Source: a virus
Strand: one strand, 5' to 3'
Length of the DNA stretch: 64,000 nt
IMG/VR virus record: IMGVR_UViG_3300031521_000043
Location: 1-64,000 of that record
Position numbers and translations under genes: made by a program. This document shows positions 18,001 to 55,487 of the stretch, piece after piece. The notes beneath the pieces were generated by a model. That model ran no database searches, was not told the DNA's origin, and worked only from the letters and a program-made list of their open reading frames with translations. Each line of letters starts with the position of its first letter. The first letter of the stretch is position 1.

Positions 18001-21000
18001 TTAAATATAATTTACATAAGAAAATCCGTCTTTTTTGGAGATTTCAAGATGACTATCTACCATATCACGTAATGCTTCCAGGTGTGACACAACCAATAAA
18101 AAATCAAAATTTGATTTTAAATATTCAAATAATATTGGTAATTTAGATAAATTTTCGGCATCCATTACGCCCATGCCTTCATCAATAATGAGAAAATTTG
18201 GCTTTGGTAAATTGGATATGTTAATCAATGCCACACGTATTGCCAGAGACAAGGCAAACTTCTCAAATCCACTTGTGAGGCTCATTAACCACTGTCTTCC
18301 ATTATAAACGATATATGGAACAATGTTATTACCGTCAGTTTCAAATAACGCGGTAAATTCACATATTTGACTCAAAATACTATTTACTTCATTTTGAACT
18401 TCAGGAACCGTTGCAGTGATAACATCAAATGGAATTCCGTCTCGACTCACGGACTGGCAGTAAAGTTCGTATAGTTTGTATTCCTTTTCAACAATTTGAA
18501 TTTTAGCAATTTTATTGTTAATTTCAGAAATCTGATTTTTACACACTGATATTTTACTGTTAATATCCATTACTGTTTTAGTTTTTGTCTTGTATGAATA
18601 TTCTACATTTTCTAGTTCTTGTTTAAATTCATTAATTTGACTTGTGATATTATCATTAAACGTCATCGATTCTATGTTTTTATTATAGAGTTCAACATTC
18701 TTTTCATGTGTTTTGATGTCGTCTTCAAACTTAGACAGGTCTTTTCTTAATGAGTTAATATCATCAGTTAATTTGATTCTATCGTCCTTTAAAGTATTAC
18801 GTTTTGATAGGAGTCCTGTCAATCTTATATTAGATTCATGTGACCATTGTATCTCTACAATCTTAGCTTCAACGATATCAAGTTTAGCCTTGATTTCAGA
18901 TGCTTCAGATTGAATTTTTTCCATCCGTTCTTTGGCTTCTTTGGCATCTTGAGCTATTGAACCAACATGTTTTACGCAAAATTCACAATCAGGGTCATAA
19001 TCAATATCTTTCGCTCTATCAAAAACCTTCATATCTCTAAGATAACTTAACTTCAACTGTTCTCGTTTATTTTCAATACTTCTTTTAGTTTCTTGAAACG
19101 TTCTTAATTGAGAAGCTAAATCAGAAACGTTTTTAGATTCAAGATTAGTTATTTCAAGTTCAACTTGTGTAAGTTGCCCCGCTACCGTCTCTATTTCCTT
19201 CTCTTTGTTTATTATGTTATCTTTTGATGTAATAGCCGACTTTTTAACTTTGTCTAACATCGATAAACTACGTTCTATTGATGGTATGTTGCCATCAATT
19301 TTAATTAGTTTTTTGGTTGTTTCAAGTATGGAGGACTGAAGTAATTCACGATGCTTACCAATACCAACCAATGTAGATTGTTCAGACTCATATAACAATT
19401 CGGCTTGTTCCAAGAAATTCTGATATTCAAGTAGTTTAGTCGTATAATCATCATTACGATACGTCTTAATCAACACAAACAACTCTTTTAACCGTTCATT
19501 TCCTTCTGTATAAAGTCTATCAAATACTGTAAGACCCATGAATTGAGCAAACAAATCCTTTCTATCTGCGTCTCCCATATCAATGACCGACGCATTATTT
19601 TTACCGTTTTGAACGCTTAAGGATGTTAAAGCGAAGTCGTCATATGACCCCAAGTATTCTCTAATAACCTCATTAGTATTACGTCTCTGTTCTCCGTTTA
19701 AGTCTACTTTTTCACCGTTTTCCAATTTCCAAAACTTGACGTCTACCTTGACTTTTCCCTTTTTGTCAGTCGTAGCATTACGAGAGATAAAGTATCTTTT
19801 TCCATCCAACTCGAACTCAAATTTACAACTAAAAGTTGTTTTTTTATCATTCATTATGTTTTTAGCCGTGGATGTACGTTCACATTTATCAAACAAACAG
19901 AACGTTAAAGCAGAAAAAATACTTGATTTTCCAGAAGCATTAGCGGCAAACAAACCAACCAAATCTTTGGTTTTAGTAAAGTCGATTACATTACCTTCAC
20001 CATATGAAAACATGTTTTCCCACTCAAATTTGATAGGCATCCAACGAATATTCCTTGCAAAATCATCTTTTTTAACTAGGTCATTAACCTCGTTATTTAT
20101 TTTGATTATACCATCTATCAAGGATTGGTCGGTGATTTTTAACTTAGTTTTTAAGTAATCAGTAATAAGTGTGACTTGATAGTTTTTATCATCAATGTTA
20201 CCCAAAACTACATTTCCACTGGATGACGGAATTCTAATTAACGACGTTCCGGTGTCTAATTTATCATAAGATATATCGACGACTTCGGTTGCCTGTTTCG
20301 CCAATGATATGGCGGCTTTAATTTCAGATGGAGTTGAATTTTTATGTTGAATACGAATTCTGGCTTTTTTTGGTATATTAGTAAAATCCGTCGTTACTGT
20401 ACCATTATCAACTACCACACTAAAAAATCCATATTCGTTCGGGACTTCGATGTGTGAATAATCTCTACGTTGTAGATTCCAAAATGAATAACCATGACCT
20501 GTTAATGGTTCATCGTGTTTTTGTTGAATAAGAGAACCGCAATAATGAATTATTGGTTTGAATGCGTCGTAATCGTATTCTTGAAGGTCTTGAATTTTAT
20601 GAATATCGCCCATTAATACGATATCGTGGTTATCAAATAAATCAACAGAAACTTGTGGAAACACAAACTTGAACCCCAAATCACTAACCGCACCATCCAT
20701 CTGTCCATGATATGTGGCAATAAAGTATTCAAATTGATTTTTGTAAATCGATGGAATGTCGGCCCCTTTTAAATATTTGTCAGGTGTATCAAACACACTA
20801 TAATTGTTTATACAAATGTTGCCAAGACCATACAATCCAGATTCTTTTAAATAAAACAGATTGGGATGATTTAATGCATCAACTATCGGACTCAAACTAT
20901 CCATTCGATTTCGATTGGTCAAGTTAGTATCATGATTTCCGGTAATAAGGACGGTTGGCCGTAGATTTGCCGCCTCACGTAAAAATTCCGCTGCAACATC

Positions 21001-21210
21001 TACACATTCAGGACTTAAATCCAATTTACTATTAACAACATCACCAAGAATAAAAATGGCTGTAGTTGGTGGGGTCTTATAAATATCCTCAAATAGTTTA
21101 TGAAATACTGTTCGATATTCTTCATGGCGTCGTGTAAGTCGAATGTGAATATCTGCGACGTGGACGATATGACTGAATTGTATGTTAGTTGGTAATTGTG
21201 TAATTGGCAT
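18001..21210 (-). CDS. Fused gp47-gp46 (SbcD-SbcC / Mre11-Rad50-like) recombination nuclease
   Basis: One 1069-residue chain contains both subunits of the T4 recombination exonuclease. Residues 1 to about 340 are a calcineurin-type phosphoesterase (VADIHIR, LGDVVNS, ITGNHD, MGDIHK). From about 380 there is an SMC-like ATPase with Walker A ANASGKSS (about 422), long coiled coils around a zinc hook DPDCEFC (about 742), signature TSGFEKFALSLA (about 981) and Walker B FLIIDEGMG (about 1008). In T4 these are two genes, 47 and 46. It processes DNA ends for recombination-dependent replication. It overlaps the zincin gene by 26 bp. I see no internal stop or frameshift. Confidence 0.95.
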   Translation of the reverse strand: MPITQLPTNIQFSHIVHVADIHIRLTRRHEEYRTVFHKLFEDIYKTPPTTAIFILGDVVNSKLDLSPECVDVAAEFLREAANLRPTVLITGNHDTNLTNRNRMDSLSPIVDALNHPNLFYLKESGLYGLGNICINNYSVFDTPDKYLKGADIPSIYKNQFEYFIATYHGQMDGAVSDLGFKFVFPQVSVDLFDNHDIVLMGDIHKIQDLQEYDYDAFKPIIHYCGSLIQQKHDEPLTGHGYSFWNLQRRDYSHIEVPNEYGFFSVVVDNGTVTTDFTNIPKKARIRIQHKNSTPSEIKAAISLAKQATEVVDISYDKLDTGTSLIRIPSSSGNVVLGNIDDKNYQVTLITDYLKTKLKITDQSLIDGIIKINNEVNDLVKKDDFARNIRWMPIKFEWENMFSYGEGNVIDFTKTKDLVGLFAANASGKSSIFSALTFCLFDKCERTSTAKNIMNDKKTTFSCKFEFELDGKRYFISRNATTDKKGKVKVDVKFWKLENGEKVDLNGEQRRNTNEVIREYLGSYDDFALTSLSVQNGKNNASVIDMGDADRKDLFAQFMGLTVFDRLYTEGNERLKELFVLIKTYRNDDYTTKLLEYQNFLEQAELLYESEQSTLVGIGKHRELLQSSILETTKKLIKIDGNIPSIERSLSMLDKVKKSAITSKDNIINKEKEIETVAGQLTQVELEITNLESKNVSDLASQLRTFQETKRSIENKREQLKLSYLRDMKVFDRAKDIDYDPDCEFCVKHVGSIAQDAKEAKERMEKIQSEASEIKAKLDIVEAKIVEIQWSHESNIRLTGLLSKRNTLKDDRIKLTDDINSLRKDLSKFEDDIKTHEKNVELYNKNIESMTFNDNITSQINEFKQELENVEYSYKTKTKTVMDINSKISVCKNQISEINNKIAKIQIVEKEYKLYELYCQSVSRDGIPFDVITATVPEVQNEVNSILSQICEFTALFETDGNNIVPYIVYNGRQWLMSLTSGFEKFALSLAIRVALINISNLPKPNFLIIDEGMGVMDAENLSKLPILFEYLKSNFDFLLVVSHLEALRDMVDSHLEISKKDGFSYVNYI

Positions 21211-21679
21211 AACTGAAAATTGGTTTGACGTGTAAATCTTCTACAAAATCGTAAAATAATTTTTCCCACGGTTTATATTTTCCTAAAAATCCTACATGTT
21301 TATATTGAAATCTTAAAGCATCCATTTCTGATGCTGACGTCCCAAAATATTTTCTTGCAACCTTATCATATTCATCTCCATCTGCCTCATACGATTTACA
21401 GTGCGGTTCGTCATATTTTACTCCACGGTAATACTGCATGTGATGTCGCCATTCATGTGCAATAATTCCAGCCTTAACATCATCTTCAAATTCATTACCT
21501 ACAACAATTACTCCATATTTCATAGATAGTGGCTTTCCTGTAATAGTGAATATTTCAGTTTCTTCATTGGGTGAATAATAAAGTCCGCCGCTTCCAGTTA
21601 AGGGATATTCCATGACTTCAGGAATAGGCAGAGTTTTGTCGGTTTTATTTCTAATCCAATTTGTTTCTAATGATTTCAT
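21185..21679 (-). CDS. Putative zincin-type metallopeptidase
   Basis: The 164-residue protein has AGIIAHEWRHHMQYY, a clear HExxH zinc motif in a helix, and acidic residues further on (YEADGDEYDKVARKYF) that could give the third ligand. Beta strands before the motif fit a minimal zincin fold. It lies between the primase and recombinase genes, with overlaps on both sides, so its job is not suggested by context. Substrate unknown. Confidence 0.65.
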   Translation of the reverse strand: MKSLETNWIRNKTDKTLPIPEVMEYPLTGSGGLYYSPNEETEIFTITGKPLSMKYGVIVVGNEFEDDVKAGIIAHEWRHHMQYYRGVKYDEPHCKSYEADGDEYDKVARKYFGTSASEMDALRFQYKHVGFLGKYKPWEKLFYDFVEDLHVKPIFSYANYTITN

Positions 21680-22608
21680 GAGTTAAGTTTCGCTTTAATT
21701 ATGTCGCAGAAGTCAAATGCTTTTGAGTTGTTAATAAGTTCTTGCATCGCATCAAATCCAAGAACAGACGGGTCTTTCTTTCCCAATTCTATCAAATGAA
21801 TGTCAATTTTATTGACTTGTAAATCTTCAATTCTATCAAAAATGTTTATAGCTTGTTTTAAAGCGTCGTTATCCAATACAATGTTTACACGTTTTACTTT
21901 ATTAGTTACTATTGCAAGTTTTAATGCAAAATTAATGGTAGTTCCAAATAACGGTATTACATTATTCTTAACTGCCATACCGTCAAATGTTCCTTCCACC
22001 AAAGTAATCGGCTCGGCCCAATTTATGAATAGTTCAAAACCTATAACATCTTTTGGCCAAGGAGGCAACATGTATTTGTAAGAATTTCCTTCGTGGTATG
22101 CTCGAGCGGCAAAGAAATTTATGTCACCATTTTTATCGTAAGATGGAACTACTACACGATGCTGATAATTGCCTTGTTCACAAAATCCTATATTATATCT
22201 AATAATATCATCCATTGTAACATTTCTGTTTTGAAGATACGACATGGCATGACCATATCCAAAATTATTGGACGGTTCCCATAAAGGTATGAATTCGTCA
22301 GGCAAAGACAAATTAACCGTTGGTTTACTGTCTACATCAGATTTAACCCAATTTTGACCTATGATTTTATATAACTCATCAAAGTATTTTTCTTTTGTTT
22401 TGAGTTTATAAAATAACGAACGAATTGATTTTCCACATGCATTACAAATCCAACAATGCCATTCTTGAGTTCTAACGTTAACTTCTAGTTTTTTCTTGTA
22501 ATGTGAACAAAAAGGACAATAATAAACTGCTTCTTCACCCTTACGAATGAATGAAGTTTGGTTTAATACTTTATCAAGCAGAGAAAATAATTGTGACTCT
22601 TTTAGCAT
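21676..22608 (-). CDS. DNA primase (CHC2-type zinc finger plus TOPRIM)
   Basis: The N-terminal zinc ribbon (YYCPFC about residue 29, WHCWICNACGKS about 51) and a TOPRIM domain with LVEGTFDG (about 203) and IVLDNDA (about 247) identify a DnaG-type primase that makes RNA primers on the lagging strand. At 310 residues it is short and resembles T4 gp61 in size. It stands directly upstream of the zincin and fused gp47-gp46 genes, a replication and recombination unit. Confidence 0.88.
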   Translation of the reverse strand: MLKESQLFSLLDKVLNQTSFIRKGEEAVYYCPFCSHYKKKLEVNVRTQEWHCWICNACGKSIRSLFYKLKTKEKYFDELYKIIGQNWVKSDVDSKPTVNLSLPDEFIPLWEPSNNFGYGHAMSYLQNRNVTMDDIIRYNIGFCEQGNYQHRVVVPSYDKNGDINFFAARAYHEGNSYKYMLPPWPKDVIGFELFINWAEPITLVEGTFDGMAVKNNVIPLFGTTINFALKLAIVTNKVKRVNIVLDNDALKQAINIFDRIEDLQVNKIDIHLIELGKKDPSVLGFDAMQELINNSKAFDFCDIIKAKLNS

Positions 22609-22649
22609 TTTGAGAGATGCTAATGTATAAAAAGTCGACAGTCAACTTA

Positions 22650-23003
22650 TTATGAAATGATACCGGAACTTCTTAAATATGACAATAACGTGTTAAATTG
22701 TTGAAGTGACGAAGAAACGGACGTTATAAAATTGTTAAATTCTGTAGGTGAACTAAACCCATATCCAGATGCCGAAACTGAACCTGTAAGAGAACCAGCA
22801 TCAGTTACTGCGCCTTTCGATGGATAAAAGTATGATGCGCTTAATGATTGACTTGCAAAAGAAGATGATGCACAATTTAACTGTAAATAGGTAATTTGGT
22901 TTCCAAGTCCATCGGCTATAATAGACCCGGACGTAACCACAGATGCAGTATAAGTTATAACAGGGTTTTGGTTTGTTAAAGTTAATGAAGATATGATAGG
23001 CAT
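22650..23003 (-). CDS. Small virion-type protein (117 aa), paralogue of next gene
   Basis: Serine and threonine rich, with the motif DGLGNQITYLQL shared with the adjacent 93-residue protein (DGLGYEITSVNI). Low charge and beta-prone sequence suggest a fibre or tail-associated protein. The ATG is about 8 bp after the neighbouring stop. Function not recognised. Confidence 0.6.
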   Translation of the reverse strand: MPIISSLTLTNQNPVITYTASVVTSGSIIADGLGNQITYLQLNCASSSFASQSLSASYFYPSKGAVTDAGSLTGSVSASGYGFSSPTEFNNFITSVSSSLQQFNTLLSYLRSSGIIS

Positions 23004-23011
23004 ATATTAAA

Positions 23012-23293
23012 TTATGGGGCAACTGACCAACTTATAATTAGACCGTTATTCACGTATACAGATTGAGTAGTGTGTGTTCCAGTATCAACCCACGATTTGG
23101 TTGTTGTCAACCCTACTGTAGACGTATAAGATGAAGATAGAGAATATGATGATGTAATGTTAACTGATGTTATCTCGTATCCAAGGCCATCTACAAAAGA
23201 TGATGATGCCGTATTCGATTGTAGTAAATCATTATAGGTCGCTGCTGGAGTTTTACCTGTTAGGTCAAATGTTGGATAGTGTGTTGCTGGCAT
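23012..23293 (-). CDS. Small virion-type protein (93 aa), paralogue of previous gene
   Basis: It starts MPATHYPTFDLTGKTPAATY and shares the DGLG...IT core and Ser-rich SSSY repeats with the 22650 gene, so the pair arose by duplication. The ending is tryptophan-containing (IISWSVAP). No known domain. An inverted late octamer lies 24 bp upstream. Confidence 0.6.
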   Translation of the reverse strand: MPATHYPTFDLTGKTPAATYNDLLQSNTASSSFVDGLGYEITSVNITSSYSLSSSYTSTVGLTTTKSWVDTGTHTTQSVYVNNGLIISWSVAP

Positions 23294-23352
23294 AGTTTTA
23301 TGATTTTATGGTTCTTTTATAAATATGTAAATTTCCACCCTTTATATCATTT

Positions 23353-23847
23353 TTAACCAAATAATGCCAAGGTCACGGCATCATACATATCTCCGTTATG
23401 CATATCCCAATCTCCATTTCTATTAAGTTTTTCAAATTCTTTTATATTTGGAACATAGAGAGGAACTTGAGATTTAACGTATTCTTTTGGTTTTATTCCT
23501 TTAATTCTTGATTTACCAAACACTTTCTTCCTTACTGTATTAACATTCAAACTGATTATTGGTTTTTTCCAAGTTTCTTCTAAAATATAACAAATTACCG
23601 ATTTATTTTTTACCAATTTAATTAATGTTTGTTGTGATGTAAAGCCAGAAGAAAATCCTGATAAAGTTTCTTCTACATTAATTTTATCAAATTCTTTACC
23701 GTCTAAACCCTCTATAATCATTTTTGATTTTTCTTTATATGTTTCAACTTTTTCTATTCGAAAAAATCCGGCATCTACTATAATGCCGCTGTCGGATATT
23801 GCCCAGCCGCAAGTAGAGGTTGATAAATCTAATCCAAGTATTTTCAT
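23353..23847 (-). CDS. RuvC-like Holliday junction resolvase
   Basis: The RNase H-like fold is indicated by MKILGLDLSTSTCGWAI (first catalytic Asp at residue 7), INVEETLSGF (second acidic residue) and the C-terminal DMYDAVTLALFG (acidic cluster). At 164 residues it is RuvC-sized. It would cut four-way junctions before packaging, replacing T4 endonuclease VII. It is overlapped at its start by the stop of the GIY-YIG gene. Confidence 0.85.
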   Translation of the reverse strand: MKILGLDLSTSTCGWAISDSGIIVDAGFFRIEKVETYKEKSKMIIEGLDGKEFDKINVEETLSGFSSGFTSQQTLIKLVKNKSVICYILEETWKKPIISLNVNTVRKKVFGKSRIKGIKPKEYVKSQVPLYVPNIKEFEKLNRNGDWDMHNGDMYDAVTLALFG

Positions 23848-24407
23848 ATAGGTTTATTAAATCTTTTCTTTTGAGAAATAGACATTTTTAATTTGGTTTC
23901 TTCACTAATAGGTTTTCGAGTTTTCCACGCCAATGACATTTTTTGTTTTGCCTCATTTGAATGTATTTTTCCAAACATAGAATTTCTATTTCCTACTCTT
24001 AATTTTGCCGATTGACTCATTTTCTTCTTTGTTTCTTCTGAAAATGTTAGTCCTTTACTCCAACTTACTTGGACGCCTATTTTTCCTTTATTCCACGGAA
24101 TTTTATTTTTCATTGGAGATAATGCGTCGTATGCTATATTGTAATATAGAGTTGGGTTAACTTTACAAACATCTAAATATTTTTGTTCATATTCTATAAG
24201 TTTATCTTTAATAGTTTCTTCAATTATACAAAACTCAAAATTATCAGCGCCATATTTATTCCATGAAGATTGTAAATGGTTATTATCATGTCGATTTTCT
24301 TTGAGTAATCGTTGATGATATCTCCACCTATGAAAAATGTCATTGGAACTTCCAATATAACACTTTCCATTTACTTTATTGATTATTTTATAAATTCCAC
24401 AAGGCAT
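23844..24407 (-). CDS. GIY-YIG homing endonuclease with NUMOD3 repeats
   Basis: A GIY-YIG core (CGIYKIINKVNG, KCYIGSS, RWRYHQR) is at the very N-terminus, followed by NUMOD3 modules (FSEETKKKMSQSA, HSNEAKQKMS, ISEETKLKMS). It is similar to the plus-strand enzyme at 2279. ATG 24407 is preferred to a GTG at 24416. The start region is covered by a 16-bp hairpin with a late promoter in its loop, an arrangement like that of T4 I-TevI. It lies upstream of the RuvC-like gene. Confidence 0.85.
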   Translation of the reverse strand: MPCGIYKIINKVNGKCYIGSSNDIFHRWRYHQRLLKENRHDNNHLQSSWNKYGADNFEFCIIEETIKDKLIEYEQKYLDVCKVNPTLYYNIAYDALSPMKNKIPWNKGKIGVQVSWSKGLTFSEETKKKMSQSAKLRVGNRNSMFGKIHSNEAKQKMSLAWKTRKPISEETKLKMSISQKKRFNKPI

Positions 24408-24410
24408 ACT

Positions 24411-24456
24411 AAACACAAAAGAACTTTCTATTTATATGGGAAGTTCTTTTGTGTTT
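24411..24456 (-). promoter_or_regulatory. Hairpin with late promoter in its loop, controlling the endonuclease start
   Basis: AAACACAAAAGAACTT (24411-24426) and its perfect complement (24441-24456) flank a 14-nt loop holding minus-strand TATAAATA (24429-24436). The proximal arm ends four bases before the ATG at 24407. Read-through transcripts would hide the start in the stem. Transcripts from the loop promoter would start near 24423 and lack the distal arm. Confidence 0.7.
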
Positions 24457-24472
24457 ATTTTTTTATATCGTA

Positions 24473-24748
24473 TTAACTTGGAAATGAAGAATCATATTTT
24501 TTAGTGTTAAGTCCCTTGACATATATGGATAAATCGCCGCCATCATTTTTAAAATCGGATACTTCTAGTTTTTGAGCGGTTAGGAATCCGTTTTTAATTT
24601 GAAATTGTGAACTCTGAAAACTTGCAAATAATGCATCAACACCGCTTTCGATGATGTTTTTAGCGTCATATGCTCCACCGGCTTTCTGTGTGGCATATCT
24701 TGTTGCCAAGTCGGTTGTCAATGATGGTCTTGGTGATGGTGTTGGCAT
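24473..24748 (-). CDS. Small virion-region protein (91 aa)
   Basis: It begins MPTPSPRPSLTTDLATRYATQK and has a compact mixed C-terminal part (FKNDGGDLSIYVKGLNTKKY). It is the last gene of the tail block before the hairpin at 24411. No family recognised. Position suggests a late virion protein. Confidence 0.6.
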   Translation of the reverse strand: MPTPSPRPSLTTDLATRYATQKAGGAYDAKNIIESGVDALFASFQSSQFQIKNGFLTAQKLEVSDFKNDGGDLSIYVKGLNTKKYDSSFPS

Positions 24749-24778
24749 AATACTTTATTCCTTTAATTATAAATATAG

Positions 24779-27469
24779 TTAAAAATCTATTTTCACTACA
24801 AAATTGATTGGAAAGTCTGGAGTTATTTTAATAGGAGAACCTAATTTCGCAATTGCAACCAAATCTGTTCCATTATAAAGGCCAATTGATGTCACTGTTG
24901 GGGCCAGGTACGAGCCTGTTGGGTCGGCCGTACTTAATCGACTATAATCTAAGAAATTTTGATTTATCACAGGAGGTTGACCTCTAAGGGTTTTTCCGTC
25001 CATATAATCGAGAATACTGCTTAGATACTTGTTTTGAGAATTTGGTGTAATATATGACTCATAGTTTTTTTGGGTCAATCTATAAATAAAATATTTCCAT
25101 AAAATGTTCATGTCGTTGGAATTGATTTTATTATCATCGTTAAAATCCAAATCTTCAAACATGGTATTATTGATATAAGAATAACTTGAAGAAAACAAAC
25201 TATCTGTACTTACCCAAGACGAAGAATACATGTTATACACGGATGTTTCTTCGTCTGTTGTAATGTCAAGAACTGAAGAAGTCCAATCGGTATTTGGTCT
25301 ACCTGTAGTTTCTGTGTTTTTATATGCCATATATCTCAATAAAACATCAGCGTCTTGGAAATCAAACCTCCCGTTTTTGTTGACATCAAATTTAGCATTA
25401 GGTAACACTATAGCCGAAGGATTTGTACTAACATTAAACTCACCAGGTTCTACAGGACATACAACTTGTTTTTCAAATACTGTCTGTTTTGATTTGAAAT
25501 CAATTTCATACTCATATTCATTGGTAGCAACACTATTCAATTGCAATCCTTCAAAGTTTGAACCTGAGGTCATGATTACAACTTTTCCATTTCTATAAAA
25601 TACATTTCCTACATAGAATTGTTCACGTAGATTTTTAAGATTATAGATATAAGCCTTGCCACTCAAATCGGCTATATCACTAACACTTCCAGTAAAACTT
25701 CCTGTAAGACTGTTTAAATCCATTTGTGTAGTAGAACCTGACATTAACATTGGAGCGCCAATAATAATAAATTGATTTGATATATCTACATCCCATCCAT
25801 ACGCTCTATATGGAGATAATAGTCGTTTTTTTGTTTGATAAACATTAGTAATGTTCCAATCCACATTAGTTGTATCAGAGACGGATGATGTTATTTTATT
25901 GTATAACACAAACTGACCGTTAAGAGAATTTTCACTGGCATCTCCACAGTAATTTTCTTGAAATAATGACCCTCTAAGATAACAAATAGAAGATGATAAT
26001 GCGTTTACTTTTGGTACACCGGCAACCGCATATTTATCAAAAATACTAACTGACCAGCCCAACAAATTATTATCCATTATTTTTTCGTTGCCATATGATT
26101 TGCGTGCGAGATAATATCCGTAGTCTCTATTACTACAACGGTCAAAGAAATACACAGCGCCTTGCTGATATAATGATGACCCAGTATATTCATGAATAAT
26201 TCTATCGTATGGTGCGCCGACCATTACACTATCACCATACATTGATACGGCGTATCCAAAAGAATCTTGATTGTTTGGATAATTTTCAACGATTGGTAAT
26301 GTCGGATAAAATGGCAATGGATAGATTGAACTGCTATCAGGTTTTAATGTAAATGTATTTTTCCATTGATTCCCATCAAATTCATAAATATATGCCTTGG
26401 AACTGCTGACTTTAGAGCTACCAACCACCATACTCCAACTAAACGATGATGACGCCTTGTTCATTCCAATGTCAGAACCAAATTTGTCTCCGGTTCCTAT
26501 ATCTGATGGCAATGGTAAGGTTTGAACAAATGACCAACTTAGGTTGTTTCCATTATATTTTCTGAACATGAATACCGAACCAAAACTACTGGATTCATAA
26601 GGAGAACCTACAGCCAACCATTCATCGTTTAATGATACTGAATATCCAAATGAAGATGTAGTTAATGTGTTTGGGTTGTATAAGGTTGTTAAATATGGAT
26701 TTGTTCCAACGACACCAACGGCTCTTTGAGATAATCCTACTATGCTTGACGTAGTATAATATGTTGGAATAGTAATATCCCCGCCGCTGTTAGATGTGAC
26801 CCCTACTGCTACGTTTAACCATGTAGAGGTTGGAGATGAGTCTTTTGTTTGAAAAATTACATATGAATAATTTTGTAATGATGGTACATCGACAGTCACG
26901 GTTATATAACCACCAATTGAGCCGGTTCCTATAATTGTTGGAGATGTTCTGTTTGCATAAGGGTCGATATCCAAAACAGACAAATCAAATAAATCCACAT
27001 ATCCAGAACCAGAAAACACTAACGATTGTGATGAAAATGTAAATACATTTCTGTAATATGGATTGCCAACAGCTAATAATGTATTGCGTATGTCTATGGC
27101 CCAACCATAACCATCTTCCGATGATGTATAATATTGAGCAGAATCCACCATCAAATCCTTATCAGCAGTATATGGAATAGAGCCCGTGTATTCTGTATGG
27201 ATAATGTCGTATGGGCCAGTCGAACCTGTATTGTTCAGCTCTGTGGATAAAAGAACTTGTTCTGTAGATGTTGCTGGTCTATAAAGAATTGTTTTAACAT
27301 CATGAACGTCGGTGTTAATATTATATTTATAAACTTCTACTGACCCTGTTCGGTTTATACTTGATGTTAATGGGTTAAATCGAAATGGGTTTGGATTTCC
27401 AACCGCCGCCCACACGTTATCGCAAGCCACAGAAAATCCAAAATTTTGATTATAAACTTGTGCAATCAT
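24779..27469 (-). CDS. Tail-associated protein with seven FG-GAP blades and a dockerin
   Basis: Seven repeats of the FG-GAP type (for example FGYSVSLNDEWLAVGSP) start near residues 10, 121, 273, 329, 403, 470 and 556, the number expected for a complete integrin-alpha-like beta-propeller. Two calcium-loop segments, FDVNKNGRFDFQDADVLLRY (about 694) and LDFNDDNKINSNDMNILWKY (about 774), make a type I dockerin pair. The last 45 residues (VTSIGLYN, VAIAKLGSP) resemble the C-terminus of the protein at 30894, probably a shared attachment module. It probably sits on the tail or baseplate as an adhesin. An inverted late octamer lies three bases before the ATG. Confidence 0.8.
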   Translation of the reverse strand: MIAQVYNQNFGFSVACDNVWAAVGNPNPFRFNPLTSSINRTGSVEVYKYNINTDVHDVKTILYRPATSTEQVLLSTELNNTGSTGPYDIIHTEYTGSIPYTADKDLMVDSAQYYTSSEDGYGWAIDIRNTLLAVGNPYYRNVFTFSSQSLVFSGSGYVDLFDLSVLDIDPYANRTSPTIIGTGSIGGYITVTVDVPSLQNYSYVIFQTKDSSPTSTWLNVAVGVTSNSGGDITIPTYYTTSSIVGLSQRAVGVVGTNPYLTTLYNPNTLTTSSFGYSVSLNDEWLAVGSPYESSSFGSVFMFRKYNGNNLSWSFVQTLPLPSDIGTGDKFGSDIGMNKASSSFSWSMVVGSSKVSSSKAYIYEFDGNQWKNTFTLKPDSSSIYPLPFYPTLPIVENYPNNQDSFGYAVSMYGDSVMVGAPYDRIIHEYTGSSLYQQGAVYFFDRCSNRDYGYYLARKSYGNEKIMDNNLLGWSVSIFDKYAVAGVPKVNALSSSICYLRGSLFQENYCGDASENSLNGQFVLYNKITSSVSDTTNVDWNITNVYQTKKRLLSPYRAYGWDVDISNQFIIIGAPMLMSGSTTQMDLNSLTGSFTGSVSDIADLSGKAYIYNLKNLREQFYVGNVFYRNGKVVIMTSGSNFEGLQLNSVATNEYEYEIDFKSKQTVFEKQVVCPVEPGEFNVSTNPSAIVLPNAKFDVNKNGRFDFQDADVLLRYMAYKNTETTGRPNTDWTSSVLDITTDEETSVYNMYSSSWVSTDSLFSSSYSYINNTMFEDLDFNDDNKINSNDMNILWKYFIYRLTQKNYESYITPNSQNKYLSSILDYMDGKTLRGQPPVINQNFLDYSRLSTADPTGSYLAPTVTSIGLYNGTDLVAIAKLGSPIKITPDFPINFVVKIDF

Positions 27470-27472
27470 AAC

Positions 27473-27480
27473 TATAAATA
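27473..27480 (+). repeat. Inverted TATAAATA element at gene starts (one of at least eight)
   Basis: TATAAATA on the plus strand, antisense to the genes, sits just upstream of the ATG at 27469. The same placement occurs at 9872-9879, 12013-12020, 16571-16578, 23318-23325, 24768-24775, 45719-45726 and 52309-52316, usually 3-24 bases before a start codon (longer at 12013). The coding strand therefore reads TATTTATA, often as CTATTTATAG. Confidence 0.6.
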
Positions 27481-27496
27481 GACTGACGTTACAAGT

Positions 27497-28735
27497 TTAG
27501 GACAATGTACGTCCCCAGTTCCACACATAAGTTAACGACAATGTTTGAATGTTTGACTTTGTTTGTGGTTGGTTAAATACACATGCAAATCCACAATAAA
27601 ATCCTTGATGTCCGTTAAAAGAGCTTCCTACGCCTATACAACGAATGTTATTAACGTTCGCGTTAGCAACAGCAAAAGTAGCAGTTTTATATGCCGTAAA
27701 CGATAATGGAACATATGCATCTTGAGTAAACGTGTCAGCAGCATACGAAACTCCATTAATTTCTCTATTTACACCTGAATTATAATTTGCGCAAGATTGT
27801 GAGTTTGTTGAAACAAATGCGCCCATAGTTGTTGCCGCCGGCTCACATACTCTTCCATCGGAGCCACCAGTATCATCTACCACAGAAACCCAACCAATGG
27901 TTGGCCCACCCAACTGTAAATTGTAAAAAAATCCAGTATCAGTTGAAGGAGAAACCGGCCATCCGGATACAGAGGCTGTTGCAGGATATCCAGGAGAACT
28001 TCCTGTTGGATATACTGCTATATCCAACTCATACATCAACCTAAGTTTTTGTCCTGCTAAAATGGATTGTGTTTGTGGTAATAATACTCTACTAAACACA
28101 TTGGCATTAGAAGTTCCTGACCCAACACCAACTTCTGTAAACACGATTGATGCCGTTTCATAAACAAAATCCCAAGTTCTTTTATTTTTTTGAACGTTTC
28201 CAACTATAGTAGTTCCACAATATGTTCCGTCCGAATTACCTACAAACATGTTGTTAGTAGAATGTACTAATGATTGTAATCCTGTTTGAGATGTTTTATA
28301 TATTGTAAATGGTTGTACACTTATTGTAGAGGTTGGTGTAATTGATGCGCTTATTCCTGATACGGCTAGTACTCGTACTTCTGATAAATCATTAAACTTA
28401 ATCATATCTCCTACTGACAATGCAGAAGAGTGACCTGAATTTGAACTGGTTAAGTTTTGTAGTCCTGTAGACCCAGTTACTAGTGTAAAAACAGAAGAGG
28501 CTACCGAACCAGAAGAATTTCCTGATGAAATGTTGTTAGTTCTTGTTCCTGTACCTACAAATCCATATGACATTACATCTGCATACAAAATAGTAGGTAT
28601 CTGGTCCATACCTTGGTTTAAAATTAAGTTTTTTTGCCATGGTAGTTCTGATACTACTTGTTCTTGTTGGTCAATAACAAACAGTTTATAACGTCCACTT
28701 AACGATTGTCCAATTTCGGCTTTTACATTATTCAT
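27497..28735 (-). CDS. Tail fibre or baseplate structural protein (412 aa)
   Basis: The N-terminal region (GRYKLFVIDQQ, LPWQKNLILNQGMDQIP) is of a type seen in phage tail proteins. The rest is glycine, serine and threonine rich with many short beta strands. No enzyme motif. It sits between the propeller protein and the tandem pair at 28761/29877. Assigned as virion structural by composition and context. Confidence 0.65.
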   Translation of the reverse strand: MNNVKAEIGQSLSGRYKLFVIDQQEQVVSELPWQKNLILNQGMDQIPTILYADVMSYGFVGTGTRTNNISSGNSSGSVASSVFTLVTGSTGLQNLTSSNSGHSSALSVGDMIKFNDLSEVRVLAVSGISASITPTSTISVQPFTIYKTSQTGLQSLVHSTNNMFVGNSDGTYCGTTIVGNVQKNKRTWDFVYETASIVFTEVGVGSGTSNANVFSRVLLPQTQSILAGQKLRLMYELDIAVYPTGSSPGYPATASVSGWPVSPSTDTGFFYNLQLGGPTIGWVSVVDDTGGSDGRVCEPAATTMGAFVSTNSQSCANYNSGVNREINGVSYAADTFTQDAYVPLSFTAYKTATFAVANANVNNIRCIGVGSSFNGHQGFYCGFACVFNQPQTKSNIQTLSLTYVWNWGRTLS

Positions 28736-28760
28736 AAATTATCACCTCATACATAGTTTA

Positions 28761-29870
28761 TTATATTACATTTCCACTGACAAATCCCGTCATCATTCTA
28801 GTATTGTCAAAGCTCATAGTTACAGTAAATGTCGTAACCAAACAAGAACCGGTGAAAAATGTTGTATAAAATTGGGATGTTTCAGGAAAACTTCCAGATA
28901 TAGGACTTGCCACGACGGGCAACACGGTAGTTAAAAGTGACCCTGTCAATAAGTTAGTAGTGATATAAGGATAATCAATTGAACTACTATCAGTAATAAC
29001 CAAGTCTACTACAGAACCGGAAAATAGTCCAACTACATATGATGAATTTTCAAAAGAACTACTATTAGTTACTACAGTATCTATTAATTGTCCAGAAACA
29101 AATGACATTATAGGGCCGGTAATATAATCCGTAATAGGTGGGGCTAGGTCTAAACTGCCACGAAAGAACGACGTTTCCATGCTAGGATAGTCTGTGATTG
29201 GCGATGTGTTATCATGCCAGTAATAATCACAGTATGATGATGACATATTTGCAATGAATTCATTGACGTATTCGCCCAACTCTTGTTGATGTGAAAACAG
29301 ATTTGTACCAGCAAAAAGATTACCATTACCATCATCTTTAATTTGATATGAATTATCTAAAGTATTATCATAAGCCACAAACGTTTTTGGAGTAATTTTT
29401 TCACCATAAACTGTTCTAGGAATATCAATCAACCGAAATCTATCCGATAAAATTCTTTTTGTTTGAGAAATTTGAAAATCTATATTTTCAATGCCCCAAA
29501 TTTTTGACGGGTCGAGATACATGTTATAAAACATCGTCTCTATTTGATGATATATGGAACGTTGGTATGTACCGTCATCGTTTGTTGGGTCTGTATCAGG
29601 ATAAAAAATTCCTTTAACATTTAATCCAATTTCTGTAGTAGCTAAATCGTTTGCTTGTTGTTCTAATGCTATGTCACACAAACTATTATCGATTGGATAT
29701 TCAGTTCCGTCTCCATAATCGATAAATTCTAATGCAAATGGGGTTCCATCATCTGAACCTGTAGATTCAGATAACAAAAGGTTTTCATTGTCACTATTGT
29801 TCAATCTCCAATCCTTCACCGCTGCGAACGGTGTAGTTTGAATTTGATATTTTTTCAATAGTTTTATCAT
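28761..29870 (-). CDS. Tail structural protein, paralogue A of a tandem pair (369 aa)
   Basis: The first 210 residues align closely with the neighbouring gene at 29877 (TTPFAAVKDW/TTPFVVTKNW, GIFYPDTDPTNDDGTYQR, DDGNGNLFAGTN, FSHQQELGEYVN). The C-terminal 150 residues differ and hold short repeats of the type GSVVDLVITDSSS. Tandem duplication followed by tail swapping is the simplest reading. Probably a baseplate or fibre-connecting protein. Confidence 0.7.
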   Translation of the reverse strand: MIKLLKKYQIQTTPFAAVKDWRLNNSDNENLLLSESTGSDDGTPFALEFIDYGDGTEYPIDNSLCDIALEQQANDLATTEIGLNVKGIFYPDTDPTNDDGTYQRSIYHQIETMFYNMYLDPSKIWGIENIDFQISQTKRILSDRFRLIDIPRTVYGEKITPKTFVAYDNTLDNSYQIKDDGNGNLFAGTNLFSHQQELGEYVNEFIANMSSSYCDYYWHDNTSPITDYPSMETSFFRGSLDLAPPITDYITGPIMSFVSGQLIDTVVTNSSSFENSSYVVGLFSGSVVDLVITDSSSIDYPYITTNLLTGSLLTTVLPVVASPISGSFPETSQFYTTFFTGSCLVTTFTVTMSFDNTRMMTGFVSGNVI

Positions 29871-29876
29871 AATAAG

Positions 29877-30884
29877 TTATATAGGACTGGAATCCCAATA
29901 TGTAGGCCCACATGTTATTATACTTGCATCCCAGTTATTTATATCTGTATCCCAATAAACAGATGATGCTGCTGTAATCGTTATTGCCGGTGTATACGAA
30001 GATGTACCAGCAGGATTTACTGCAAACATTCGATACCAATAAGTTACACTATGAGAAATGTTTGAGTCTGTGTAACTATATGACATACCATTAAATAATT
30101 GGTTGTATAACACTCCATCAGTAGACTTTTCTATTACATAACTTGTTACCAACCAATTGTTTACATTCCAACTAATTATTGAAGATGTAGCGCAAACGTT
30201 ATACAATACTGACATAATTGGCATATCAGGACGGTTAATTGCATCATAGAAATCACAATAATTTAAACTTCCTGTTACAAAGCCATTTACAAATTCTCCT
30301 ATTTCCTGTTGATGTGCAAAAATATTTTTTCCGGCGAATAAGTTACAATTTCCATCATCAGTTATTAAATAATCATTGTCTGTGGTTTTATCATATATTA
30401 CAATTGTATTTGGAATCATTTTTTCCCCATATACTAATTGTGGTATTTCAAACATTTTAAATTTATCTGCGAGAAATCTTTTTGTTTGAGACTTATCAAA
30501 ATCTATTTGTTCAAGTCCCCATATCTTGGTAGGGTCGCGATAGTTGTTATAAAACATATTAACAACTTGAGAGTATACAACTCGTTGATATGTTCCATCA
30601 TTATTTTTTGGGTCGGAGTCAGGATAGAAGATTCCTGACAGTTTTAATCCATCACGATAACGAGCTAAATCATTGGTTTGATTTTCCAATGCAACATTAC
30701 AATTGCTTGCAGTCACAGGAAAATTAGGCCCAAAAATAAGATACTCTATCCCAACAGGCAAACCATCACTGCCACTATGTTCCATGAGGATAACATCCTC
30801 GTTTGTTACATTTGACAGTTCCCAATTTTTTGTAACAACGAACGGTGTGGTTTGTGTGTCATCTTTATGGAGTAACTTGAGCAT
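29877..30884 (-). CDS. Tail structural protein, paralogue B with FN3 domain (335 aa)
   Basis: The N-terminal 210 residues are shared with paralogue A. Residues about 222-305 form a fibronectin type III domain (SSIISWNVNN, TSYVIEKSTDG, YWYRMFAVNPAGTSSYTPA). FN3 modules in tail proteins are thought to help bind carbohydrate at the cell surface. The end is a short repeat containing tryptophans. It is separated from paralogue A by six bases. Confidence 0.75.
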   Translation of the reverse strand: MLKLLHKDDTQTTPFVVTKNWELSNVTNEDVILMEHSGSDGLPVGIEYLIFGPNFPVTASNCNVALENQTNDLARYRDGLKLSGIFYPDSDPKNNDGTYQRVVYSQVVNMFYNNYRDPTKIWGLEQIDFDKSQTKRFLADKFKMFEIPQLVYGEKMIPNTIVIYDKTTDNDYLITDDGNCNLFAGKNIFAHQQEIGEFVNGFVTGSLNYCDFYDAINRPDMPIMSVLYNVCATSSIISWNVNNWLVTSYVIEKSTDGVLYNQLFNGMSYSYTDSNISHSVTYWYRMFAVNPAGTSSYTPAITITAASSVYWDTDINNWDASIITCGPTYWDSSPI

Positions 30885-30893
30885 TTCATTCTA

Positions 30894-32075
30894 TTAGAAA
30901 TCTAGTCTAACTTTGATAAGTAATTCGTTATCGAACGTTTTCACAGCTGGACGGCTCAATTTAGCAACGGCGACAAGTTCATTAGTATCATTATATAGAC
31001 CGACAGTTGTAATGTATGTAGTCGGATTTGAAATAAAATCTTGATTGTAAATCAATCCTGCGGAATGTACTCCATCCGTTCCATCATAAACATATGTTGG
31101 ATTGTTTGAATAGTTAAAATCACGATTCATAACTCTGATAAAATAGTTCAATGAAGGAACATATTCAGATTTACGAACTTTGATGGTGGCATTTGCGTTT
31201 TGTATTGCCCAAGCAAACACTTCATGGTTCCATGTGGTAGGAATTAAAGAACCGGAACTTTGTCCTGGTATTGCAATTCCGTCTATACTGTTTGTTGTAT
31301 AATTAGCCGGACATACTTTGCCATTTGGAGCAGTAGAACCTGATACACCATTTAGACCAATTAAATTATTAATTGTAGATGCATTAAATACAACAACACC
31401 ATCATCTGGATAGAACAATCCTATACCCTGATATGGTGGCAATGTTGTTGTGGAATCATTAATCGAACCTTGTATCAAATTGTACACAGATGATGCTTGA
31501 GATAAGAAAGGCGAATCATCACGAAGAGTGATAGACCCATTTGAACCTGATAATGTGATTTCAAAAACACCCTCGTCAATTTTATCTTTCATCTTATAAG
31601 AAGAAAAATTAATTACAAAAATATCTCTCGATTTAATCATCGTTGGATTTGCTGCGCTTCCTGATGCAAATTGAAATAGTCCAGATTCTCCTTCGCCCAA
31701 AAGTAAGTTTTGATATTGTGTATAAATTGCTTTTGGCGCAAAAGCTTTAATACTTGCAGTATCAAGATTAAAAGTTCCACTGCCAGATGCTTCGCAGTCA
31801 TAATTTCCATATGCAACAGACATATATGGGTCATTATTAGATAACGTAGTTGAATCTGGAAACATATCAACATAGTACATTGTTCTACGAATATCATAAA
31901 TTGATGTTCCATATGATGGTGATGGTGTAACAGATGATTGCGTCAAAGCATAAAAATTGTCTGTTAATCCGCTTTGGCTGATAAATGTGATTCCATCAGG
32001 CCAAAATCCACTATCGATACGATTCGTTCTTCCTGCAACGATGTCTGTATTTGCGTTTAATTGATTAAATATCAT
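30894..32075 (-). CDS. Tail/baseplate structural protein (393 aa)
   Basis: A beta-rich protein beginning MIFNQLNANTDIVAG. The C-terminus (TTVGLYNDTNELVAVAKLSRP, then IKVRLDF) is shared with the end of the FG-GAP/dockerin protein, so both may dock onto the same partner. Its order beside the 213-residue VDAILTTKGR protein is typical of T4-like phages of aquatic bacteria. Exact role unknown. Confidence 0.7.
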   Translation of the reverse strand: MIFNQLNANTDIVAGRTNRIDSGFWPDGITFISQSGLTDNFYALTQSSVTPSPSYGTSIYDIRRTMYYVDMFPDSTTLSNNDPYMSVAYGNYDCEASGSGTFNLDTASIKAFAPKAIYTQYQNLLLGEGESGLFQFASGSAANPTMIKSRDIFVINFSSYKMKDKIDEGVFEITLSGSNGSITLRDDSPFLSQASSVYNLIQGSINDSTTTLPPYQGIGLFYPDDGVVVFNASTINNLIGLNGVSGSTAPNGKVCPANYTTNSIDGIAIPGQSSGSLIPTTWNHEVFAWAIQNANATIKVRKSEYVPSLNYFIRVMNRDFNYSNNPTYVYDGTDGVHSAGLIYNQDFISNPTTYITTVGLYNDTNELVAVAKLSRPAVKTFDNELLIKVRLDF

Positions 32076-32089
32076 ATGCTATGTTTCTG

Positions 32090-32731
32090 TTATACTGTGG
32101 TTGGAACAGTCACCGTGACTTCAATACTCAAACTTCCTCCGGATTCATTTCCGATGATTGTTAAAGTTGTAGAAGTAGTCTGTCCCAAACTACTGTTTGG
32201 AATAAATCTGAACGTTTGACCGACAACGACCTGTGCGCTGGTCGTATTAATATCTCCTGCAAATGTTGGAATTGTACTAGATACAGAGTTGATAGAATTT
32301 GCTTGGTCTACAATTAACACTCCGACGTTTTTATTTCCTAAAATTGCCGTATAACCTAATGTCAAATTGTATGCCGGATTTGTTGATGGAGAAATTGAAA
32401 TAGTTCCTGTATAACTACTTGGAACGGAAATTTTATCTTGTGCAATGCTAATTACAGGAATTGTTGTTACACCTTGATTCAAACTAACCAATTTGTATTT
32501 CATTACCTGAGTTTCGTCGGACACAGGTTCGAATACAGGAGTATTTCTTATAGCGATATCATAAAACGCACTACCGTTTGGATGATTTGGCTGATAAAGT
32601 GTATAATCAATTTCATCATCGGCTAATCCAAAACTGGTGATGCTAAGATTGCCATTTTGCGCTAAAAGTTGACGACCTTTGGTTGTCAAAATTGCATCTA
32701 CTGTTATTGTTGTATTGTCTACGTATGCCAT
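32090..32731 (-). CDS. Conserved virion structural protein (VDAILTTKGR family)
   Basis: The N-terminal 60 residues (VDAILTTKGRQLLAQ, SITSFGLADDEIDYTLY) are a signature I recall from many T4-like cyanophage and marine phage structural proteins. The C-terminal 150 residues are an all-beta Ig-like region. Likely a tail or baseplate component. The start is followed on the genome by an 80-bp gap before the giant structural gene. Confidence 0.7.
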   Translation of the reverse strand: MAYVDNTTITVDAILTTKGRQLLAQNGNLSITSFGLADDEIDYTLYQPNHPNGSAFYDIAIRNTPVFEPVSDETQVMKYKLVSLNQGVTTIPVISIAQDKISVPSSYTGTISISPSTNPAYNLTLGYTAILGNKNVGVLIVDQANSINSVSSTIPTFAGDINTTSAQVVVGQTFRFIPNSSLGQTTSTTLTIIGNESGGSLSIEVTVTVPTTV

Positions 32732-32813
32732 ATCGTTTATTCCTAAGTTTTAATTCACACTATTACATAAATAGAATGATTTCACCATTTCGTGTCCGTT
32801 TTTATGGTTTTGT

Positions 32814-35800
32814 TTATGTTAGATAATGTTTATCTTTTATATTTTTACCCTGTTTTGACTTATTTCCGATGTTAAGCTGTCCTGTAGTTGGGGTGACGGT
32901 ACCTGCCACAGAAGATGGAATGTTCTGAATCACGTTGGTCGTATTGATTATGTTTACATTACTTGTATCGGACGTTTGTACAGGATAACTACCATCATTA
33001 ATACCTTGTTCGTTGATAGTTGTATTGATTGTCTGTCTTCCTTTTATAAAAATACCTTGACTAATTGTTCCATATTTCGTTTTAGAAAACTGTTGCGCTT
33101 TATGAATATAATGATTTCTAGGATATCCTGTCACTAATTCAAAATATTGTGCGACCGAGTTCAAATTTAATGAAAAGTTTGTTTTTAATATTGGTGTAAG
33201 ACTGTTAGCTATTGCAAATATATTACTTACTTTTTGGTCAGGAGTGTTTAAGAACGTATTAACTGCATGTAAGTATGAGTTATTCACAGCATCGTAGTTA
33301 TATGATAAACTAGACGAATTATAGACGGACAAATATATTTGGTCTGTAAAATATACCAAATTTCTCATATAATACTCATCAACAACAATATATTTATAAA
33401 GATATATAGATGCCGATGCGTATGTATTTTCCAAAGGATTTGTAGTATGGGTATAATTTCCGGTCTTTGTATAGTAATAATACTTATCCCACACTTTTAA
33501 CATATAATAAACTATAGGATGATTTCCGTGATTTGACCCTGAGAAAAATTTATTAGAATAGTTTACACCTTGGTCTGGTCCAATTAAAAATCTACCATTA
33601 TCTCCTGGTTGGTTTGTTACCGAACCATTAATTGGTCGAGTATATCCTACTGGTAAAGTTCCAGTAGAAGATGTCTCCCACAATCTAGGGAGAGTTTCAA
33701 AATTTGGATAAAATCCTTGTTGAACGTTATCCATACAGTCAGTGTAATATCCGTCATTAAAGTTACATTGCCAACTGCGGACTGGATTGCCTGTATATCT
33801 TAAATCAAAGACTGTGTTGTAGTTTGGAGGCATCGAATTTGACATAGATATTTGCAAACTTGGATTTGAGTCGTTGATTTTAGAAAAATCCGTATTGAAA
33901 TTTATCCATAGAGGAACGGTATCAAATTTATAAATGTTGTTTATAATAGACTGTCTAGTCGATTGATATGATATTTGCGCACTGGATGTCAAAGGTCTGT
34001 TTTGATATTTTGGTCTTTCTAATAACGTTGGTTCTACCACAACGCCCATATACGCATTGGCTCTTGCTGGAATGATATTTTTTATTGCTTGAAAAATCGA
34101 CTTATCAAAATAGAACTTATAAACTGTCAATAATTCATTGAAATATGTTCTTTTGTTTCCGTTTAAGTTGTATTGATAATTTTTATTTCTTAAATCATAA
34201 TATCTATCACTATAAAGATTTGATGGGTCGCCTAAAAACTCCATGATACCAGTTTTACCAACATATCTCAAAATATCTTTGTTCTTCGAATCTTGGGGGT
34301 CAATAAAAAATCCTAGTTGATTGGATTCTCCTGAAACAGACGAATCAGGTTCACTAGTAGACCTATTAAATGAATCTAATCTAGCATCTAATGTATAACT
34401 CAATCTGTTAATTTTTAGATTTTTGTATTTGTTTGGGCCATATTTTGATGCGTTTATGTTTTGTTCATAAGTTAATTCATCGAATTGATATGGATATACC
34501 GATTGTGACACCCAACTACACACAGGCGCACCTACGAATGATGCTGAGAATGCATTTCCTATTGCGGCTGGAAAGTTATAAGCAATAATATCTACCGAGC
34601 CTGTCGGATAATACGCTCTCCATACATTGTTTATAATGTTAACTGACGCAGAATATAATGTAGGATTGACTGTTGTAAATGTATTATTTGTATAATAATT
34701 TGGAATATTGTAGTATGCGGAATCATTACTTACCCAAACTTTACCTGTATTTGAATACATATTTTGTGGATAATCCCAATTAAGTCTTATCCATAAATTT
34801 TGGTCTGCCACAGACCCGCTATAACCATACGAATTTAAATCGTTTACGTGTTCTTCGAAATCTGCGTTGTCAATTGGAACATCCCAAATTGATAACTTAT
34901 CCAACGTCCCTTTTAAATTTCCGTTTGTTAACCTAAACCTCCCCCATTGAGAGAAGATTTTGTTATCATCATTGTAAAGTATGGCGCTGGACGTTGAATA
35001 GAAAATTCTATTTCCACGTTCGTTTCTTTGAACGGTCAAATCATATTCTAATGGAATTTCGTTAATGTCTAATGCCGGCTCAAATAACGAATCCGGCTGA
35101 TTTCTTCTAACCATTACACTAAAAATATCTCCATTAAATATTGGTAATGCGCTACTTGTTATTGAAGTTCCAGAAGAACCAGAACCCATTTGAAATATCA
35201 CTTTACCTGTAGATTGGCCAGGAACTTTATAGAATCCAACAGTCCAATTAAAGTTCGCTGAACTGGTGAATTGATATGGGATGCTTGTAAATAATGGAAC
35301 ATATGTGAAATCTTCATATACATCCGATGTTAGTTTATCTATAGAAAACTTAAATTCTACAGTATTAGTTGAATATGGAATTGGGCCTTCAATGTAATCT
35401 CCTATACCAGAAAAATTTAACATGTAAGTTTTTTCATCCAACGCATAAGTTGGAGATGTATCGTCGGCATAATCGGTTCCGCCGTATTCCCGAACAGTTA
35501 TCATCGATGATGGCAATCCATAACATGACATCAAATAATTAACACACTCCAAAGTTCCTTTGGTCTTATACAATCCAGGCAAACTTACTAAAATACGATT
35601 CCAAATAGTTTGTAATCTTTGTTGTCCTGACAACGCATTATAAGATGCTGAATCCATGCTGTTCAGATACACTTCGTCAATATCCAATGAACCAATAATA
35701 TCATCAACATTCCACCCAAATGAATACAACATTTCTTTTAAAGTATTGTTTGGAATGCTTGATGTTAATTCGTTTCTTACTTGCCTTTCTATAGGCATAG

Positions 35801-42215: not shown

Positions 42216-42216
42216 A

Positions 42217-55396: not shown

Positions 55397-55487
55397 TGGC
55401 GGATGACAAGAGAATCGAACTCTCACCGGCTTTTGACCGGAACTGTTTTCGAGACAGCCGCAACAAACCAATATTTGCCTATCATCC
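55397..55487 (-). tRNA. tRNA-Ser(CGA), reads UCG
   Basis: The acceptor GGATGAT pairs with GTCATCC, and CCA is encoded. Anticodon loop CTCGAAA. Class II variable arm with stem CCGG/CCGG. T-loop TTCGATT. 91 nt, the leftmost tRNA of the cluster. Confidence 0.93.

What the first reader, a model, noticed from the sequence alone, without database searches (positions are those of the whole stretch)
24779..27469. Phage virion protein combining an integrin-type propeller with a dockerin
Seven FG-GAP repeats, the number for a closed propeller, are followed by two dockerin calcium loops. Dockerins bind cohesins in cellulosomes and on cell surfaces. In a tail protein this suggests calcium-dependent docking, either to a cohesin-like domain on the host surface or to another virion protein.
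Basis: partly seen in the sequence, partly recalled or inferred. Interest (0 to 1): 0.66.

Follow-up and report, generated by a model that had tools for sequence, protein, structure and literature searches.

The report
Phage propeller protein with inserted dockerin
A large tailed phage from an environmental sample carries a probable tail protein made of a seven-bladed propeller (likely the part that touches the host) and a calcium-binding dockerin module set inside its conserved tail-attachment domain; the parts are known, the combination in a phage looks unreported, and the module more likely helps build the tail than grips a host cellulosome.

Summary
The ORF at 24779-27469 (minus strand, 896 aa) has seven FG-GAP repeats and two dockerin calcium loops, both above Pfam cut-offs. 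AlphaFold with 29 orthologues gives a propeller over residues 5-616 that superposes on seven-bladed integrin-alpha heads (Z up to 29). The dockerin module (690-830) is modelled confidently and is nearest in sequence to solved cellulosomal dockerins. The calcium-ligand positions are invariant in 29 orthologues.

The reading needs changing. The dockerin is not appended to the propeller. It is inserted into a conserved C-terminal domain of a tail-protein family found in Flavobacterium phage immuto, Microcystis phage Mel-JY01 and huge phage LR756508, and part-shared with the neighbouring gene 30894-32075. Those relatives have roughly 17-33 residues where this protein has 166. No cohesin was found in 15 related phage records (up to 369 kb), and no second dockerin in the nine scanned. 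Dockerin helices and the C-terminal domain are better conserved than the propeller, which argues for a fixed partner inside the virion, or self-stabilisation, rather than a variable host receptor. This is a new domain architecture in a known kind of phage adhesin. Virion location, calcium binding and partner are untested.

The parts
24779..27469 (-). whole gene: propeller + dockerin protein, 896 aa
   Evidence: ORF; orthologues in IMG/VR; dN/dS well below 1, dS near saturation
25634..27469 (-). seven-bladed FG-GAP beta-propeller, residues 1-612
   Evidence: Pfam FG-GAP_2; AlphaFold model; integrin alpha heads, Z up to 29 over residues 5-613
27392..27442 (-). FG-GAP repeat 1 (residues 10-26)
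27059..27109 (-). FG-GAP repeat 2 (residues 121-137)
   Evidence: sequence; conserved columns G122, D126, G135
26684..26962 (-). optional all-beta insert between blades 2 and 3 (residues 170-262)
   Evidence: strands in model; absent or nearly so in 17 of 29 orthologues
26600..26650 (-). FG-GAP repeat 3 (residues 274-290)
   Evidence: sequence; conserved columns F274, G275, W284
26414..26482 (-). FG-GAP repeat 4 (residues 330-352)
26210..26260 (-). FG-GAP repeat 5 (residues 404-420)
   Evidence: Pfam best stretch 400-440
26012..26062 (-). FG-GAP repeat 6 (residues 470-486)
25751..25801 (-). FG-GAP repeat 7 (residues 557-573)
25394..25624 (-). first half of the conserved C-terminal tail-protein domain (residues 616-692, GNVFY...EFNxSTNP)
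   Evidence: hhalign 98.5% to the immuto gp105/Mel-JY01/LR756508 profile
25319..25387 (-). dockerin half 1: calcium loop 695-706 and F-helix to 717
   Evidence: ligand positions invariant in 29 orthologues; helix 704-720
25148..25318 (-). long helical linker inside the dockerin (residues 718-774)
   Evidence: 52-68 residues in all orthologues; helices 739-751 and 755-769
25079..25147 (-). dockerin half 2: calcium loop 775-786 and F-helix to 797 (invariant WKY...RL)
24920..25078 (-). rest of the insert, helical (residues 798-850)
24782..24919 (-). second half of the conserved C-terminal domain (residues 851-896, TGSYLAPxVTTIGLY...KIDF)
   Evidence: hhalign 98.7% to gp105-like and 97.0% to 30894-like profiles
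30894..32075 (-). neighbouring protein whose C-terminus is the same domain without a dockerin
   Evidence: blastp 46% over 39 aa; hhalign; homologues in phages
28761..30884 (-). two paralogues sharing a 217-aa N-terminal domain that in LR756508 sits on one chain with the C-terminal domain

Best explanation
This is a host-recognition (adhesin-type) protein of the tail or baseplate of a large myovirus-like phage. The seven-bladed FG-GAP propeller is the outward, more variable part and probably binds a host-surface ligand. The C-terminal domain, shared with other proteins of the same tail module, fixes it to the virion. A dockerin-type calcium-binding module, enlarged by a helical linker, is inserted in one loop of that domain. 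Loaded with calcium, it most likely makes a fixed contact inside the virion (with the propeller, another copy, or a neighbouring tail protein), so the adhesin is assembled or held in place in a calcium-dependent way. Shown by computation: ORF, repeats, loops, ligand conservation, insertion point, synteny. Predicted: propeller closure and helical dockerin. Inferred: virion location, calcium binding, ligand binding, and the internal-contact role.
For: Pfam FG-GAP_2 in 29 of 29 and Dockerin_1 in 26 of 29 orthologues. Model pLDDT mostly 75-94 over the propeller and 78-92 over residues 690-800; integrin alpha heads Z 26-29, and the seven-bladed WD40 proteins CIAO1 and G-beta Z 26-28, over residues 5-616. 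D695, N697, N699, D703, D706 and D775, N777, D779, D786 invariant in 29 sequences; dockerin half-repeats (majority fraction 0.82 and 0.77) and C-end (0.80) exceed the propeller (0.54-0.61). The dockerin splits a domain whose two halves each match the gp105-like family at 98.5% and 98.7%. In LR756508 the N-terminal domain of 28761/29877 and this C-terminal domain lie on one 304-aa protein at the same place, before the RuvC-like, primase and SbcC-like genes. In Mel-JY01 the positional equivalent carries a LamG domain instead. A neighbouring gene matches a tail-fibre family, and a baseplate wedge gene lies upstream at 40227-42230. dN/dS about 0.1, with dS near saturation.
Against: No virion proteomics was found for this group. 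No partner has been identified. The C-terminal domain itself was modelled poorly (pLDDT about 30), so how the insert sits on it is unknown. High conservation of the dockerin could also come from folding constraints alone.
Confidence: 0.45

Rival explanations
1. The dockerin is only a calcium-stabilised structural insertion: it folds, rigidifies the C-terminal domain and contacts nothing specific.
For: It is inserted in a loop of a conserved domain with both ends returning to it; no cohesin found; calcium-ligand positions are among the most strictly kept.
Against: Non-ligand helix residues (W791, K792, Y793, R797, L798) are also invariant, which suggests an interface, although core packing could explain part of that.
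Confidence: 0.3
2. The dockerin docks the phage to a cohesin-like domain on the host surface (one of the first reader's two options).
For: Sequence nearest to dockerins that bind cohesins; tail-gene context.
Against: The module is the conserved part and the propeller the variable one, the reverse of usual receptor-binding evolution; it is set within the C-terminal domain; related isolates infect Flavobacterium, Microcystis and Rhodothermus, not known to me as cellulosome bearers. Host unknown, so not excluded.
Confidence: 0.1
3. The dockerin binds a divergent cohesin-like beta-sandwich in another protein of the same virion: a true dockerin-cohesin pair used for tail assembly.
For: Dockerin signature; invariant helix residues; many neighbouring tail proteins of unknown fold.
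Against: Pfam cohesin finds nothing in 15 records, including contigs of 251-369 kb. A diverged cohesin could be missed, and the records may be incomplete.
Confidence: 0.13

Closest known systems
Laminin G-bearing tail protein of Microcystis phage Mel-JY01 (WWT39517.1), and gp105 of Flavobacterium phage immuto
   Same: Same C-terminal domain (GNVFY...EFNxSxNP...TTIGLY), and same genomic place after the 30894-like gene and, in Mel-JY01, before the primase/SbcC genes
   Different: They keep an N-terminal domain that here sits in separate genes; Mel-JY01 carries a LamG domain instead of a propeller; both have roughly 17-33 residues instead of the 166-residue dockerin insert
FG-GAP propeller proteins of viruses (e.g. 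Cyanophage S-TIM5 H6WG31, described as virion structural protein; Agrobacterium phage Atu_ph07 A0A2L0UZX4)
   Same: FG-GAP-type propeller in a tailed-phage protein
   Different: Only the propeller was compared; whether they carry a dockerin was not examined
Type I dockerins of cellulosomal enzymes (4fl4, 2vn5/2vn6, 1daq, 2mte)
   Same: Two loops with D/N at positions 1, 3, 5, D/N at 9 and D at 12, each followed by an F-helix
   Different: Internal rather than a terminal module; about 56-residue helical linker between halves; Phe-Gln at positions 10-11 of loop 1; no cohesin found
Integrin alpha-subunit heads (1jv2, 9t3y)
   Same: Closed seven-bladed FG-GAP propeller fold
   Different: No DxDxDG calcium motifs in the blades; about 15% identity; no evidence of shared ligand

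Membership tests
FG-GAP seven-bladed beta-propeller | seven FG-GAP repeats | tested here: met
   FG-GAP_2 77.8 bits, cut-off 23; seven repeats located (plus sequence reading)
FG-GAP seven-bladed beta-propeller | closed propeller fold | tested here: met
   AlphaFold model; alignment to seven-bladed integrin, CIAO1 and G-beta over residues 5-616, Z 26-29. Predicted, not solved
Integrin alpha-type propeller | DxDxDG calcium loops in the blades | tested here: not met
   Only two such motifs in the protein, both in the dockerin
Dockerin type I (Pfam PF00404) | profile score above the curated cut-off | tested here: met
   26.7 bits vs 22.9; matched at E 0.01 in 26 of 29 orthologues
Dockerin type I (Pfam PF00404) | two F-hand calcium loops with Asp at position 12, loop then helix | tested here: met
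   Ligand positions invariant in 29 sequences; helices 704-720 and 784-794 after the loops
Dockerin type I (Pfam PF00404) | compact module of about 60-70 residues with a short linker | tested here: not met
   52-68 residue linker in all orthologues; so it is filed as dockerin-like, not as a typical type I dockerin
Dockerin type I (Pfam PF00404) | dockerin fold by structure comparison | tested here: inconclusive
Dockerin type I (Pfam PF00404) | binds a cohesin | not testable with these tools
   No cohesin detected in the phage records; host unknown
gp105-like phage tail protein C-terminal domain | both conserved half-motifs in order at the C-terminus | tested here: met
   hhalign 98.5% and 98.7%
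Phage virion proteins | present in purified particles | not testable with these tools
   Inferred from gene neighbourhood only

The most novel reading that the evidence does not exclude
A dockerin module inserted in the tail-anchoring domain works as a calcium-dependent lock that joins the propeller adhesin to another virion component, so that a plug-in interaction known from cellulosomes is used for assembly or calcium-triggered deployment of a phage tail.
Probability: 0.27. Interest if true: 0.65.

Novelty: new variant of a known kind. Interest (0 to 1): 0.42.

Why it matters
Dockerins are known chiefly from cellulosomes, and I know of none studied in a phage virion. A dockerin kept with invariant calcium ligands across a whole clade of large environmental phages, built into the domain thought to anchor a tail adhesin, would be a natural case of dockerin chemistry used in virus assembly. 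It would offer a concrete molecular reason for calcium dependence of infection in such phages, and possibly a new natural dockerin-partner pair. It also shows a tail-protein scaffold in which binding domains (LamG, propeller) are exchanged between phages.

Tried and rejected
Chance match for the loops: rejected (shuffles; conservation). Plain EF-hands: EF-hand profiles score below their cut-offs while Dockerin_1 passes; position 12 is Asp in both loops and no helix precedes loop 1 in the model. A cohesin in the phage or its relatives: none in 15 records. A second dockerin in nine related records: none. Close relatives in named phages: no whole-protein match; the C-terminal part matches immuto phages and LR756508 only. 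Relatives in cellular genomes by profile: none; the terminase gave no host hint either. First AlphaFold run with 8 sequences was too poor at the C-terminus; the run with 29 was used. Dockerin fold by structure search: the lists were filled by propellers, no verdict. Literature: no paper found describing a dockerin or FG-GAP domain in a natural phage virion; PMC5967307 mentions a 2wz8-like module in a coliphage protein and PMC3558961 a dockerin-like blastp hit for a vibriophage gene. A dockerin query against named phages gave five weak gut-phage hits, among them a Ruminococcus phage gene annotated only as hypothetical, so a dockerin in a phage record as such is not unique. Rfam on 20000-34000: nothing.

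Full report
What was checked. The ORF at 24779-27469 on the minus strand encodes 896 residues. The window lies in a 73,489-base virus record that is probably a fragment of a large tailed phage: portal, large terminase, baseplate wedge and SbcC-like genes are present, 22 tRNA-like genes lie at 55-64 kb, and relatives sit on contigs of up to 369 kb.

Propeller. Pfam finds FG-GAP_2 with 77.8 bits. Seven repeats start at residues 10, 121, 274, 330, 404, 470 and 557 (and direct reading). AlphaFold with 29 orthologues gives mean pLDDT 73.8, with mostly 75-94 over the blades. The model aligns over residues 5-616 with seven-bladed propellers: integrin alpha heads (Z 26-29) and the WD40 proteins CIAO1 and G-beta (Z 26-28). 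So the prediction is a closed seven-bladed propeller. The calcium motifs of integrin blades are absent. An all-beta insert between blades 2 and 3 is optional among orthologues. Similar propellers occur in other tailed-phage and giant-virus proteins.

Dockerin. Dockerin_1 scores 26.7 bits over the whole protein and 28.7 on the region alone, above the cut-off of 22.9; EF-hand models stay below theirs. A profile of the region finds cellulosomal dockerins first in the PDB, best E-value 8e-5. Loops 695-706 and 775-786 carry Asp/Asn at positions 1, 3 and 5, Asp or Asn at 9 and Asp at 12; positions 1, 3, 5 and 12 of both loops, and position 9 of loop 1, are invariant in 29 orthologues sharing 40-82% identity with the window protein. 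The model has a helix after each loop, and two extra helices in a linker of about 56 residues between the halves, longer than in ordinary dockerins. The dockerin half-repeats are more conserved (0.77-0.82) than the propeller (0.54-0.61).

Where the dockerin sits. Residues 616-692 and 851-896 match, in order, the two halves of the C-terminal domain of a tail-protein family represented by immuto gp105, Mel-JY01 WWT39517.1 and an ORF of LR756508 (hhalign 98.5% and 98.7%). The second half also matches the neighbouring protein 30894-32075 and its homologues. In the immuto and Mel-JY01 proteins the halves are about 17-33 residues apart; here 166 residues (162-178 in the orthologues) lie between them. 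The dockerin is therefore an insertion into a conserved domain. Since it is missing from all other members seen, gain in this clade is the simplest history (inference).

Gene context. The order tail genes, 30894-like, 28761/29877-like, propeller, RuvC-like, primase, SbcC-like is largely kept in relatives. The two genes 28761 and 29877 share a 217-aa N-terminal domain with different C-terminal parts. In LR756508 that N-terminal domain and the C-terminal domain of the propeller protein are on one 304-aa chain. In Mel-JY01 the protein at this place carries a LamG domain. This looks like a scaffold on which binding domains are exchanged, and it supports an adhesin role for the propeller. The neighbouring gene 27497-28735 matches a tail-fibre PHROG.

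Partner search. Pfam cohesin finds nothing in 15 related phage records, including contigs of 279, 354, 365 and 369 kb. The dockerin occurs only in this gene in the nine records scanned. The host is unknown; scans of cellular genomes with this protein and with the terminase gave nothing. The nearest named phages infect Flavobacterium, Microcystis and Rhodothermus.

Mechanism. Best reading: the propeller faces the host, the C-terminal domain holds the protein on the tail, and the calcium-loaded dockerin makes a fixed internal contact. The main argument is that the dockerin and its helix residues W791, K792, Y793, R797 and L798 are kept while the propeller varies. A host-docking role is not excluded but has no support. 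Calcium binding, virion location and partners are inferred, not shown.

Novelty. Each module is known. I found no report of a dockerin in a natural phage virion protein, nor of this combination, in the held literature; gut-phage records with weak dockerin matches exist. This is a new variant of a known kind, of moderate interest until a partner is found.

Noticed in passing
L038:9989-12240: In the most diverged orthologue the gene is split in two overlapping ORFs (overlap at 11359-11365), propeller in one and C-terminal domain with dockerin in the other; could be a frameshift or a real split.
   Followed up: partly
L008:4838-7525 (same contig as L037): A close orthologue carries an in-frame TAA about 46 codons after its start, in an otherwise open gene.
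   Followed up: no
16598-17245: FkbM-type methyltransferase (Pfam Methyltransf_21, 43.7 bits) encoded in the phage, beside a NUMOD3 gene and near the packaging genes.
   Followed up: no
23844-24416 and 17238-17999: Probable homing endonucleases: the first looks GIY-YIG-like by sequence, the second has a NUMOD3 motif.
   Followed up: no
55397-63950: A cluster of 22 tRNA-like genes on the minus strand, including four Ser and three Glu.
   Followed up: no
32090-32731: A 213-aa protein of unknown function is the most conserved of the tail module (66-91% identity in relatives) and has homologues in RM378, Mel-JY01 and immuto.
   Followed up: no
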